From the NCBI GenBank assembly GCA_016196755.1, contig JACPXC010000064.1, positions 1 to 52,955 of the forward strand: 52,955 nucleotides of DNA. The letters run 5' to 3'. The notes under the pieces are model-generated. The model was not told where the DNA came from. It worked only from the letters and a program-made list of their open reading frames with translations, and searched no databases. Below, piece after piece: positions 32,663 through 52,955 of this stretch (its first letter is position 1; each line of letters begins with the position of its first letter). The stretch is from Elusimicrobiota bacterium (GTDB lineage: Bacteria; Elusimicrobiota; Elusimicrobia; UBA1565). Made by a program: the position numbers and the translations under genes.

Positions 32663-32687
32663 CCGCCGGTGCCGCCCTATTAACCGG

Positions 32688-32710
32688 GGTGCCTGCTATT
32701 TAACACCCCC
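32688..32710 (+). repeat. Left copy of a 23-bp inverted repeat flanking the HNH gene
   Basis: Its reverse complement matches 33481-33503 at 22 of 23 positions; the core GCTATTTAACACCCCC (32695-32710) is exact. It lies between the stop of the giant gene and the end of the convergent HNH gene. It also overlaps a hairpin (32684-32691 pairing with 32704-32712, one bulged C) that could stop transcription, although no T-tract follows. Confidence -1.
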
Positions 32711-32717
32711 GGCAGGG

Positions 32718-33308
32718 CTAGCGGCTGGATGAGGCGGCTGCTCGGATGCGGATGCTCTCCGCGACCCAAGAAAGCTCCTCACGGACGGCCTGCTCCTGGG
32801 TCACCTCGGCGCGCTTGAGGCGCTCGCAGAGCTGGAACTCGAGCTTGGCCTTGGCGCGCGCGTCGGCGTAGGGCATCGGCCAGATGTTTCGAAGGTCGTT
32901 GGAGCCCCCGAGGCATAACGAGAGTAGGTGGTCGAACTGGTACAGGTGGTGCTGGTCCCACGGCACGCCGTAGCGGCGCGAGACCACCTTCTTCTCGTCG
33001 GTCGAGAGGTTCCGGCGACAGTAGGCGATCTGTTCGGGATATCGCCGCTCGGTGTAATCCTTGTCGGAGGCGGTGCAGAGGATGCCGGGCGTCAGGGTCG
33101 GGTTGGGGGCCGACTCCCAGCGGCCTTTCGCGTGGATGGGCTCGATGGCCGCGGCTGCCGGAAGGGTGGGTAGCTGGCCCGCGGGAGGCAGGGCTCGGGC
33201 CGCGGAAAGTATCGCCGTAGGCGATTGCGGGGGCCAAGTCCCCGGTTCCTGCGCCAAGACCGTTAAGCCAGACACCAAGGAAACGACAACAGCCAATAGC
33301 CGCGCCAT
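32718..33308 (-). CDS. Exported HNH-type protein (putative nuclease), 196 aa
   Basis: I start the gene at ATG 33306-33308 because a near-perfect ribosome site (GGAGGTGGG) lies just upstream. The longer frame adds 30 residues with no signal. Residues 1-20 are a signal peptide (Arg-3, hydrophobic core, 'VLA/Q'). The conserved part is residues 72-145: 'TPGILCTASDKDY', 'RYPEQIAYCRRN', then 'FDHLLSLCLGGSNDLRNIWP' (125-144). The last has the DH...GG.ND..N.WP signature of HNH/beta-beta-alpha-metal nucleases. Cys-78, 97, 132 and 161 could form disulfides in the periplasm. Similar small exported proteins are widespread and generally uncharacterised. A DNA-cleaving role is an inference from the motif; an immunity partner is not visible. 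The gene is convergent to the giant gene and divergent from the motor operon. Confidence -1.
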   Translation of the reverse strand: MARLLAVVVSLVSGLTVLAQEPGTWPPQSPTAILSAARALPPAGQLPTLPAAAAIEPIHAKGRWESAPNPTLTPGILCTASDKDYTERRYPEQIAYCRRNLSTDEKKVVSRRYGVPWDQHHLYQFDHLLSLCLGGSNDLRNIWPMPYADARAKAKLEFQLCERLKRAEVTQEQAVREELSWVAESIRIRAAASSSR

Positions 33309-33406
33309 TAACCCACCTCCGGGCCTCCGGAATCGTGCGGCTGGAAGCCCCCGTGCCAGACTTACGGAGTTTAGCACGAAGGGCCAGACTTTAGGCAAGG
33401 GGGCTT

Positions 33407-33480
33407 TGTTGCGTTCGGGGTCAGACCTTCTTGTTGCGCTTCCGGAAGCGCAACAAGAAGGTCTGACCCCGAACGCAACA
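33407..33480. repeat. Perfect 74-bp palindrome (two 37-bp arms, no spacer)
   Basis: The left arm, 33407-33443 (TGTTGCGTTCGGGGTCAGAC...), is the exact reverse complement of the right arm, 33444-33480. The centre is CTTCC|GGAAG. It lies in the divergent intergenic region, directly next to the right 23-bp repeat copy. The 'GGGGTCAGACC' core resembles the palindromic repeats seen near REP-associated (Y1-type) transposases; that likeness is from memory. No T-tract follows either arm, so it is not a classical terminator. Confidence -1.
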
Positions 33481-33503
33481 GGGGGTGTTAAATAGCTGGC
33501 ACC
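33481..33503 (-). repeat. Right copy of the 23-bp inverted repeat flanking the HNH gene
   Basis: GGGGGTGTTAAATAGC plus TGGCACC is the inverted partner of 32688-32710, with one mismatch. Together the two copies bracket 816 bp that hold the HNH gene and the 74-bp palindrome, giving the outline of a mobile or once-mobile cassette. No transposase lies between them and no clear target-site duplication is visible. Confidence -1.
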
Positions 33504-33703: not shown

Positions 33704-33790
33704 GGGCGATAACGGCAAACTCGGCGTAAGCCGGGGGCGCAAAGCCATGACCCCTGCGTGAGCGGGGGCGTCAGGCTACCGAACTCGATG
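33704..33790 (+). promoter_or_regulatory. Cyclic-di-GMP-I (GEMM-I) riboswitch aptamer
   Basis: The sequence follows the GEMM-I layout. GGCAAAC (33714-33720) is followed by a hairpin capped by a GTAA tetraloop (loop 33726-33729). GGCGCAAAGCC follows, ending at 33746. A second hairpin, CCCCTGC/GCGGGGG, has a GTGA loop (33758-33761), and the 3' element is CAGGCTACCGA (33772-33782). Closing helix P1 is short by eye: CGA 33707-33709 with TCG 33785-33787, so that part is uncertain. The first plausible ATG of the next gene (33788) starts directly after it. In known members this RNA binds c-di-GMP and often controls motility and surface genes. Confidence -1.
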
Positions 33791-35451: not shown

Positions 35452-37437
35452 ATGACCCGTCACCTGCGACGCTCCTGGCCAGCCCTGGCGCTGGCGGCCG
35501 CCCTGTCGGGCGCCGCCATGGCGCAGATCGACGCCCCGCAGATGACGCTTATCGCCCAGCGCGACGCCATCGCGCAGGCGGCGCGCGGACGGGTCCAGAC
35601 CGAGATCCTCGACCGCCTGCTCGGGGCCGGCAAGGCCTCGGCCTTCGTCGACGTGGAGGTCGAGCTCAAGGCCAGCCGCCGCGAGAACCTGCGCTTCGGC
35701 GCCGGCCAGGCCGAGAAGAACAAGATCAAGGAAGGGGCGGGCTCCAACGCCCTCAAGACCAAGTTCATCCTCCCCGGCGTCCCCCAGCCCAAGAACATCA
35801 TGGACAAGGAGGAGCCGCGCCCCGCCGAGGCGGCGCAGAGTCAGACCGCCCAGCAGACCAAGACCGACCAGGAGCTGATCTTCACTCAGGACCTCGTGGT
35901 CAAGAAGTTCCTGGTCACCATCCTCCACGACGCCGACGTCCTGGCCCAGGGCGACCAGATGAAGGTCCGTGAGCTCGTCCTCGAGGCCCTCAAGGGCTAC
36001 GAGGTGAAGGCCGACGACGTGGTGTTCCGGGCTTTCAAGCACCACAAGGCCGAGAAGGACTGGCTGGGCGACCTGATGGACCCCAAGGTCTACCTGCCGC
36101 TGCTCTACGCCCTGCTCTCGCTCTTGCTCCTGGCTTTTCTTTTCGGGCCGTTCGCGCGCTTTCTCAGGCGTTACGTCGAGGCCCTGGTCCAGAAGCCGGC
36201 CGCCGAGATCAACGTGGAGTCGAACATCACCCCGCCCGAGGACGACGGCAAGGGCGGCAGCGACCTCGAAGAGACGCTCAGGAGCCAGGTGGAGATGCTG
36301 GTGGGGCGCAAGCCGGCCGAGCCGTCGCCGCCGCCCCCGCCGCCCCCGCCCGACGACGACGAAGATGACGAGGAGAGTGCCATGGCGAAGAAGGAGCCGT
36401 TCTCCTACATCAGCGATACCAACCTCAAGAACCTCGCCAACCTCTTCCTCCTGAGGGCCGAGGAGCCTTGGCTCGTGGCGGTGGTGCTGAGCTATCTGCG
36501 CCCCGAGTACGCCCGCCAGGTCCTGACCTCCCTGCCGGTCGAGCTCCAGGCCAAGGTGGCGATGGAGGCCCTCAAGGTCCGCCAGGTCACCCGCGAGCAG
36601 ATAGCCGCCATCGACGCCGACATCAAGGAGAACATCGATTACGTCGTGGGCGGCATCGAGCGGCTCATCCAGATGCTCGAGGAGGCCGACCCGCGCTCGC
36701 GCTCCAACATCCTCGACTACCTCCAGAACGACAAGCCCACCGTCTTCGAGTACGTGCGCAAGAAGATCCTGCTCTTCGAGGACGTGGCGCGCTTCGCGGA
36801 CCGCGAGATGCAGGCCATCGTGCGCGAGCTCAAGACCGACCAGATGGCCCGCGCCCTGCATGGCGCGCCGCCGGAGGTCGCCAACAAGTTCTTCGCCAAC
36901 ATGTCGACCGGCGCGGCCTCGCTCGTCAAGGAGGCGATGGAGTTCCAGAAGGACCTCACGGCCGCTCAGGTCGAGGAGGAGCGCGCCAAGGTCATGGAGC
37001 ACGTGAAGCTCCTCGAGAAGCAGGGGCGCGTCAACATCCGCGGCGCGGAGGCGGGGGGAGGCTTCCACCAGGTCATCGCCACCGAGTCGGTGCGCGGCTC
37101 GCGGCTCAGCCAGCTCACGGGCCCCGCCGCCGCCAAGCCCGCCGAGCCGCCGCCGACGGCGGAGGACCCGGCGCTCGCCCGGCGCTGGTACGAGGCGGGC
37201 GCCCGTTCGCTCGAGGAGGGCGACCTCGACGCCGCGGTCAAGAGCCTGCGCCAGGCCGTCGAGCTCGACTCCCAGCTGGCCGACGCTTATAATTCCCTCG
37301 GACAGGCGCTCTATCAGATGGGGCGCTATTCCGAGGCCATCGTCTTCTACGAGAACTACCTCCGTCTGAGGCCGGACCCCGAGCTCCGCGCCTGGGTGGA
37401 CGGCGTCAAAGCCTCCCAGGCCGGCACAGGAGCATAA
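35452..37437 (+). CDS. FliF-FliG fusion with C-terminal TPR (membrane rotor protein), 661 aa
   Basis: ATG 35452 follows a GGAAGGAAA ribosome site. A signal peptide or N-terminal anchor (residues 1-24) is followed by a FliF-like periplasmic part. Its landmarks are 'RVQTEILDRLLGAGKASAFV' (47-66) and the ring-building beta-alpha unit near 147-196 ('KKFLVTILHD...VRELVLEALKGYEV'). A transmembrane helix spans about 213-240. A Pro/Asp/Glu-rich linker (288-310) leads to FliG middle (about 325-400) and C-terminal domains: 'KKILLFEDVARFADREMQAI' (438-457), 'ALHGAPPEVANKFFANMS' (468-485), ending near 530. A TPR unit fills 573-645. FliF rings 1 and 2 and the FliG N-domain, which normally joins the two proteins, appear to be missing; fusion replaces that contact. 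The FliG C-domain is what MotA pushes on, and MotA/MotB lie three genes downstream. Domain calls are by eye. A weak second promoter (TTGAAA 35407, TAAGCT 35430) may precede it. Confidence -1.
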   Translation: MTRHLRRSWPALALAAALSGAAMAQIDAPQMTLIAQRDAIAQAARGRVQTEILDRLLGAGKASAFVDVEVELKASRRENLRFGAGQAEKNKIKEGAGSNALKTKFILPGVPQPKNIMDKEEPRPAEAAQSQTAQQTKTDQELIFTQDLVVKKFLVTILHDADVLAQGDQMKVRELVLEALKGYEVKADDVVFRAFKHHKAEKDWLGDLMDPKVYLPLLYALLSLLLLAFLFGPFARFLRRYVEALVQKPAAEINVESNITPPEDDGKGGSDLEETLRSQVEMLVGRKPAEPSPPPPPPPPDDDEDDEESAMAKKEPFSYISDTNLKNLANLFLLRAEEPWLVAVVLSYLRPEYARQVLTSLPVELQAKVAMEALKVRQVTREQIAAIDADIKENIDYVVGGIERLIQMLEEADPRSRSNILDYLQNDKPTVFEYVRKKILLFEDVARFADREMQAIVRELKTDQMARALHGAPPEVANKFFANMSTGAASLVKEAMEFQKDLTAAQVEEERAKVMEHVKLLEKQGRVNIRGAEAGGGFHQVIATESVRGSRLSQLTGPAAAKPAEPPPTAEDPALARRWYEAGARSLEEGDLDAAVKSLRQAVELDSQLADAYNSLGQALYQMGRYSEAIVFYENYLRLRPDPELRAWVDGVKASQAGTGA

Positions 37438-52764: not shown

Positions 52765-52780
52765 GACTTCTGATTGGGGA

Positions 52781-52826
52781 CAGTCCCTGAACTTCTGATT
52801 CGTACGAATCAGAAGTTCAGGGACTG
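52781..52826. repeat. Perfect 46-bp palindrome downstream of the PBP gene
   Basis: CAGTCCCTGAACTTCTGATT plus CGT (52781-52803) is the exact reverse complement of 52804-52826. A 10-bp part of the arm (ACTTCTGATT) is also present at 52766-52775, just after the PBP stop. The 'GGGGACAGTCCCTG' edge resembles REP-type palindromes associated with Y1 transposases; this likeness is from memory. It could also act as a 3' hairpin for the PBP message, though no T-run follows. Confidence -1.
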
Positions 52827-52846
52827 ATAATCATCTAGAAGTTAGA

Positions 52847-52911
52847 GGTCCCCTCCCGGGGTTGGTAGTGTTTGTTTGCCGACACACACAGACCAAACAA
52901 AGGAGAGGACC
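52847..52911 (+). promoter_or_regulatory. Hairpin that can bury the transposase ribosome site
   Basis: GGTCCCCTCC (52847-52856) pairs at nine of ten positions with GGAGAGGACC (52902-52911), and TTTGTTTG (52871-52878) pairs perfectly with CAAACAAA (52894-52901). The two stems stack on the 3' side. The ribosome site AGGAGAGG (52901-52908) lies within the paired 3' strand, so folding would limit transposase translation. It may equally be part of a structured guide RNA region; both are inferences. Confidence -1.
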
Positions 52912-52912
52912 C

Positions 52913-52955
52913 ATGAAATTATACGCGGCCATCGACCTGCATTCCAACAACAACG
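52913..52955 (+). CDS. IS110-family transposase, first 14 codons only
   Basis: ATG 52913 follows the strong ribosome site AGGAGAGG. The visible residues 'MKLYAAIDLHSNNN' match the N-terminus of IS110-type (DEDD) transposases, where the Asp of 'IDLH' is the first catalytic acid of the RuvC-like fold. The remainder lies beyond the window, so completeness is unknown. IS110 enzymes work with a structured non-coding RNA encoded at one end of the element. Confidence -1.
   Translation, partial: MKLYAAIDLHSNNN

What the first reader, a model, noticed from the sequence alone, without database searches (positions are those of the whole stretch)
33407..33480. Perfect 74-bp palindrome with no spacer
37-bp arms match with no mismatch. 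Such long perfect palindromes are unstable during replication, so this one is either recent or kept by selection. Its abrupt link to the 23-bp repeat copy and the 'GGGGTCAGACC' core suggest a REP-like element or a transposon end joined head to head.
Basis: partly seen in the sequence, partly recalled or inferred. Interest (0 to 1): 0.5.

Follow-up and report, generated by a model that had tools for sequence, protein, structure and literature searches.

The report
Two transposon ends fused into palindrome
The 74-base perfect palindrome is real and is most likely a tiny mobile DNA element made of the two ends of a bacterial transposon joined with nothing between them; several copies sit in this genome, and similar ones occur with matching transposases in related species.

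Summary
Confirmed: 33407-33480 is a perfect, spacer-free palindrome (2 x 37 bp; chance expectation about 3.5e-16). It is repeated: the genome holds four full palindromes plus truncated and single-arm copies, ten places in all. Among full copies five arm positions vary, four of them identically on both arms, which argues against a fold-back assembly error. A single arm lies immediately upstream of a Y1 (HUH) transposase gene on contig C33. In 4 of 5 species checked, such palindromes consist of two terminal inverted repeats (TIRs) of a tyrosine transposase of the same genome, fused at their inner ends. A second palindrome in this window (52781-52826) matches the TIRs of two other transposases of the genome. 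Best reading: a minimal non-autonomous TIRYT element (TIR dimer), the TIRYT counterpart of REPINs, moved in trans. It is not a classical REP: no GTAG, and single TIRs mostly lack a hairpin. It abuts a second TIR family that bounds an inserted element carrying an HNH-like gene; the four relatives with a readable site lack the whole insert.

The parts
33407..33480 (.). Perfect 74-bp palindrome: two TIR arms fused at their inner ends (family 1)
33407..33443 (+). Left TIR arm: repeat TGTTGCG (33407-33413), core GGGGTCAGACC (33417-33427), repeat TGTTGCG (33432-33438), centre CTTCC
   Evidence: same layout next to the C33 transposase gene
33444..33480 (-). Right TIR arm, exact inverse of the left
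32667..32710 (+). Family-2 terminal repeat, left (two units starting GGTGCC)
33481..33503 (-). Family-2 terminal repeat, right; directly abuts the palindrome
32718..33308 (-). Passenger gene between the family-2 ends: 196 codons from ATG at 33308, signal-peptide-like start and HNH-like motif (motif recalled, no family hit)
   Evidence: homologues elsewhere in relatives
52766..52826 (.). Second TIR-dimer palindrome (perfect part 52781-52826, 23-bp arms); left arm continues outward as repeat ACTTCTGATT and core GGGGACAG

Best explanation
[quoted passage not shown] A Y1/HUH transposase elsewhere in the genome (C33:51402-52196, minus strand) has the same arm immediately upstream and is the likely enzyme, acting in trans. 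Shown: the multi-copy family, the arm beside the transposase gene, cognate TIRs in other species, absence of the whole local insert in relatives. Inferred: on single-stranded DNA the two arms fold back on each other, the transposase recognises the paired TIR stem, cuts at the outer ends and rejoins the element elsewhere, often just behind stop codons. Arms stay identical because only well-paired copies move, and/or because template switching copies one arm onto the other; the data do not separate these two.
For: Four full palindromes and ten places in the own genome. Four of five variable arm positions changed on both arms. Same arm directly upstream of the C33 Y1 transposase, which has HUH and Y---NP residues. 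In G052, G044 and G003 one transposase is bracketed by TIRs with the inner sequence of that species' palindromes. Core doublet in 8 of 340 genomes, 32 forward matches, none in the reversed control. Five other transposases of the genome have clear flanking TIRs. The second palindrome of the window matches the TIRs of the C31 and C34 transposases. The core fits the published TIRYT motif GGGGWSAS, and TIR dimers are reported (PMC3733652 section 16). Single TIRs mostly do not fold, TIR pairs do.
Against: The C33 transposase has the arm only on its 5' side; the inverted copies at its other side lie about 1.1 kb beyond its stop, past two response-regulator-like genes, so C33 is not a clean TIR-gene-TIR unit. 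Pfam finds no HTH in the C33 protein, although its C-terminus aligns with those of HTH-bearing relatives. In G024, which has such palindromes, none of its 7 transposases carries the matching TIR. The C33 arm itself has some single-strand fold (z -2.74 on one strand). No movement has been observed; exact ends and target duplications are not established.
Confidence: 0.82

Rival explanations
1. A classical REPIN: two GTAG-type REPs in inverted orientation, each a small hairpin recognised on its own by a TnpA-REP.
For: Multi-copy, inverted doublet, gene-end positions, Y1 transposase partner; the C33 transposase scores 75 bits against NCBIfam's REP-associated tyrosine transposase, just under the cut-off of 80.
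Against: No GTAG (or CTAC) in the arm. Single TIRs: median of the better z -0.16, only 2 of 16 below -2. Other transposases of the genome carry long TIRs instead of REPs.
Confidence: 0.1
2. An assembly fold-back artefact.
For: Draft assembly with 67 contigs; no reads available.
Against: Three further full palindromes on other contigs with different arm letters, each with unrelated flanks and the same boundary; similar palindromes in other genomes, one of them held as a single contig (G044).
Confidence: 0.02
3. A host hairpin with a function of its own (terminator or mRNA 3'-end protector) rather than a mobile element.
For: Copies at C57, C37:151887, C52 and C48 lie 0-2 bp from the stop codon of an open frame and C33:50237 overlaps one; the RNA hairpin is very stable (-70 kcal/mol).
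Against: No run of T after the stem; absent from relatives at the sites that could be compared; the window copy lies about 100 bp upstream of the passenger gene's start, not at a gene end.
Confidence: 0.04
4. Each palindrome arose locally by fold-back copying of a single TIR during replication, with no transposition of the dimer.
For: Single arms and truncated palindromes exist; arms agree within copies and differ between copies.
Against: It needs independent events at four loci with nearly the same centre; dimers recur in G052 (six copies with almost the same arms).
Confidence: 0.12

Closest known systems
TIRYT / TIRtron and dispersed TIR repeats (Di Nocera et al. 2013, PMC3733652; section 16 read)
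   Same: Y1 transposase genes with terminal inverted repeats carrying GGGGWSAS; TIRs also dispersed as dimers and clusters.
   Different: Here the dimers are spacer-free or nearly so and perfectly symmetric; the arm is repeat-core-repeat; the organism's phylum was not identified, so overlap with their species is unknown.
TnpA-REP subclass 2.1 (Quentin et al. 2018, PMC6006769; passages)
   Same: HUH and Y---NP motifs; C-terminal HTH in C26 and C28; long proteins.
   Different: That survey found no REP-like repeats near subclass 2.1 genes; here TIR dimers are found. Subclass placement by a tree was not done.
REPIN (Bertels and Rainey 2011, PMC3116915; passages)
   Same: Inverted doublet that folds into one long hairpin, multi-copy, cognate Y1 transposase, compensatory changes.
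   Different: REPINs there are built of REPs with a conserved 16-mer and a spacer (71 bp between 16-mer starts); here no GTAG and no spacer.
IS200/IS605 single-strand transposons (passages)
   Same: Same Y1_Tnp superfamily.
   Different: Those ends are read through a subterminal hairpin at each end with guide tetranucleotides; the TIRs here mostly lack such hairpins.

Membership tests
TIRYT-associated TIR element | Arm sequence lies at the end of a Y1 transposase gene in the same genome | tested here: met
   C33, directly upstream; in G052, G044 and G003 on both sides
TIRYT-associated TIR element | Inverted TIRs on both sides of the partner gene | tested here: inconclusive
   Own genome: C33 has only the 5' arm nearby, the inverted copies lie about 1.1 kb past the other end. 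Five other own transposases have clear pairs
TIRYT-associated TIR element | Core motif GGGGWSAS | tested here: met
   GGGGTCAG in family 1, GGGGACAG at 52776-52783; motif
TIRYT-associated TIR element | HUH and Y---NP catalytic motifs in the partner | tested here: met
   H60, H62, Y119, N123, P124 invariant in 8 aligned transposases
TIRYT-associated TIR element | C-terminal HTH in the partner | tested here: inconclusive
   HTH_23 in C26 and C28 but no Pfam HTH in C33; C-termini align
TIRYT-associated TIR element | Mobility by the partner transposase | not testable with these tools
   Only indirect: absence in relatives
REP / REPIN (GTAG type) | GTAG tetranucleotide at the foot of each REP | tested here: not met
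   No GTAG or CTAC in 33407-33480
REP / REPIN (GTAG type) | Each unit is a small hairpin by itself | tested here: not met
   14 of 16 single TIRs not beyond z -2; the C33 arm is one of the 2 exceptions, on one strand
REP / REPIN (GTAG type) | Multi-copy inverted doublet, outside genes | tested here: met
   Four full palindromes, ten places; copy number is low compared with usual REPs
REP / REPIN (GTAG type) | Y1 transposase partner | tested here: met
   (75 bits, cut-off 80)

The most novel reading that the evidence does not exclude
TIRYTs work by TIR pairing: unlike IS200 and REP enzymes, which read a small hairpin at each end, the enzyme reads the duplex made when the two TIRs of one DNA strand anneal. 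The spacer-free palindrome is then the smallest possible transposon and matched arms are a condition for movement. The family-2 element that houses it would be a TIR pair of the same broad type carrying a passenger gene instead of a transposase.
Probability: 0.3. Interest if true: 0.65.

Novelty: new member of a known kind. Interest (0 to 1): 0.42.

Why it matters
It gives TIRYT transposases (in the 2018 survey, genes of the likely corresponding subclass had no REP-like repeats nearby) a REPIN-like counterpart, with cognate pairs in four species. It offers a testable idea of how a single-strand transposase can act on ends that have no hairpin of their own. The same window suggests that TIR pairs of this general type can carry host-like genes into the spaces behind stop codons.

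Tried and rejected
The passenger protein matched no Pfam or NCBIfam family above cut-off and no solved structure convincingly (best E 0.48). Three of the 15 places matching the 14-base core pattern (C18, C51, C37:121817) share only the core and were dropped. The C37:151887 site could be compared on its right side only, because the left neighbour differs in both congeners. The C49 family-2 element could not be tested for an empty site, because only its right flank matched. No native locus of the passenger gene was found: among the relatives' loci only the gene itself is shared. The copy number of the second palindrome could not be searched genome-wide, because one search was the last allowed genome search. 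The terminator idea was rejected for lack of a T-run. Text search for the core sequence gave 3 papers, unrelated by title. A search for cargo or passenger genes together with RAYT terms held 102 papers, 20 listed; by title none of the listed ones is about cargo of RAYT or TIRYT elements (listing only). Papers on palindrome instability were seen as a listing only.

Full report
Observation. The palindrome at 33407-33480 is exact: two 37-bp arms, no mismatch, no spacer. In this window (69% G+C) the chance expectation is about 3.5e-16, and in 20 shuffles the longest perfect arm was 8-11 bp.

It is a repeat family. A search of the own genome (4.59 Mb, 67 contigs; the window is the whole of contig C25) gave 21 two-strand matches at ten places. 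Four are full palindromes: the window, C37:151887-151962, C57:10107-10183 and C48:20124-20197. Two are truncated palindromes (C37:365917, C10:24663). C13:39211, C52:60537 and C33:52239-52275 are single arms, and C33:50237-50304 is two arms in tandem. The 14-base core pattern gave 15 matches and none when read backwards; three of these share only the core and were dropped.

Arms change together. Among the four full copies five arm positions vary; at four of them both arms carry the same change, and at one (C48) only one arm has changed. Flanks are unrelated from copy to copy and the arms stop at nearly the same boundary. This is not what a fold-back assembly error produces. A genome held as one contig (G044) has its own 58-bp perfect palindrome with the same core. 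Reads were not available.

Anatomy. The arm is a short repeat TGTTGCG, a core GGGGTCAGACC, the repeat TGTTGCG again, then the centre. On contig C33 the same arm lies directly upstream of a transposase gene, with its centre side toward the gene. The palindrome is therefore two transposon-end-like arms in transposon orientation with everything between them missing. The gene belongs to Y1_Tnp (E 2.5e-9) and scores just under the cut-off of NCBIfam's REP-associated tyrosine transposase (75 against 80 bits). It has the HUH residues and the Y---NP motif. The genome has 12 Y1_Tnp hits. Five of the 12 have a clear flanking inverted repeat (C45, C27, C26, C28, C12; scores 25-31.5 against a shuffle maximum of 16.5), each with GGTGYCAG and its own sequence beyond it; the other seven, C33 among them, stayed below the shuffle maximum in that test. 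The inverted copies on the far side of C33 lie about 1.1 kb away beyond two response-regulator-like genes.

What kind. The paper that named TIRYTs reports tyrosine transposase genes flanked by terminal inverted repeats, many with the motif GGGGWSAS, and says that many TIR elements are organised in dimers or clusters (PMC3733652, section 16 read). GGGGTCAG fits that motif. A 2018 survey reports C-terminal helix-turn-helix domains and no REP-like repeats for the subclass that probably corresponds to TIRYTs (PMC6006769, passages). Two transposases here, C26 and C28, hit HTH_23; C33 does not, but its C-terminus aligns with theirs.

Independent cases. A search of 340 genomes of the phylum for the core in inverted doublet found it in 8 genomes, 32 forward matches, none in the reversed control. 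I then read the flanks of Y1 transposases found: all 6 in G052, all 7 in G024, 7 of 10 in G044, all 7 in G003, 3 of 5 in G001 and 1 of 4 in G002. In G052, G044 and G003 one transposase is bracketed by TIRs whose inner sequence is that of the species' own palindromes. In G024 none was found. G188, G232 and G325 were not examined for this. G001 and G002 have no such palindromes. With the own genome that is 4 of 5 species checked.

Second palindrome in the window. 52781-52826 is a perfect palindrome with 23-bp arms. To its left the arm continues as core GGGGACAG and repeat ACTTCTGATT, which also occurs inside the arm: the same design. The arm matches the repeats next to the transposase genes on C31 and C34 with 1-2 mismatches in 20. 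Its right arm is cut at 52827 by another repeated element that sits against the same repeat on C31 and C34, near the ends of those contigs.

Where the first palindrome lies. It directly abuts 33481-33503, the right end of a second repeat family whose only other copies in the genome are 32688-32710 and the two ends of an element on C49 (matches of 43 and 42 nt at 98 and 95%). Between the ends in the window is a gene of 196 codons from an ATG at 33308 with an HNH-like motif (recalled); in C49 there is a different gene of 240 codons. Neither matches a transposase family in Pfam or NCBIfam. In the relatives whose orthologous site can be read (G001, G004, G005, G007) the upstream stop codon is followed closely by the downstream promoter region, with no gene, no family-2 ends and no palindrome. 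G002 (contig end), G003 (two contigs) and G006 (no clear orthologue) are not informative. The passenger gene has homologues at other loci in G002, G003 and G001 without such ends. So the whole element, with the palindrome inside it, is most simply an insertion in this lineage.

Recency and distribution. The 74-mer has no match in the 2 same-genus and 5 other same-family genomes; of 57 genomes searched only the own one and, weakly, G052 match. The C33 transposase has relatives in 46 of the 57 genomes, own included, but outside the own genome none of the listed matches is more than 47% identical (not all rows were shown). At the C57 site G001 has no palindrome, and G002 has a transposase gene close behind the same gene's end. 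Copies at C57, C37:151887, C52 and C48 lie 0-2 bp from the stop codon of an open frame and C33:50237 overlaps one; C10, C13 and C37:365917 show no such tight placement (open frames, not curated genes).

How it probably works. Y1 enzymes of this superfamily act on single-stranded DNA (passages of PMC8266576, and PMC6006769). Single TIRs here mostly do not fold: the better z per TIR has a median of -0.16 and 2 of 16 are below -2, one of them the C33 arm itself. Each TIR with its complement folds at -31 to -55 kcal/mol. The simplest scheme is that the two TIRs of one strand anneal, and the transposase reads that stem, cuts the outer ends and reinserts the element. This is inference. Selection for paired arms, or copying of one arm onto the other during replication, would keep the palindrome perfect; the data do not tell these apart.

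Verdict. It is a new member of a described kind (TIR dimers of TIRYTs), not a GTAG-type REP, in a spacer-free form that makes the recognition mechanism testable.

Noticed in passing
window 52827-52955; also L010 and L055 (C31, C34 contig ends): A repeated element begins at the broken right arm of the second palindrome; its ORF starts MKLYAAIDLHSNNN at 52913 (looks like an IS110-family transposase, recalled). The same element start sits against the matching repeat on C31 and C34, so it may target TIRYT ends.
   Followed up: partly
window 32667-33503 and L033 (C49:15613-16883): Two elements with nearly identical terminal repeats carry different passenger genes, both with signal-peptide-like starts, and no transposase.
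   Followed up: partly
window 33705-33784 (+): c-di-GMP-I-GGC riboswitch (64 bits, gathering 59) upstream of a PorV-family/TPR protein gene; the insertion lies just upstream of its promoter region.
   Followed up: no
window 2-32662 (+): An open frame of more than 10,800 codons running off the left end of the contig, ending just before the family-2 repeat.
   Followed up: no
window 35452-37437 (+): FliG middle and C-terminal domains fused to TPR repeats in one protein.
   Followed up: no
L011, L014, L016, L032, L055, L056, L057 (transposase leaders): Divergent transposase genes share a leader resembling GGGAAC...GG...GCGTAYTA shortly before the ATG, between TIR and gene; perhaps a promoter or recognition site.
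   Followed up: no
G188 loci L123, L131, L137: Clusters of the bare core in alternating orientation (14 doublet matches), a tandem form of the repeat.
   Followed up: no
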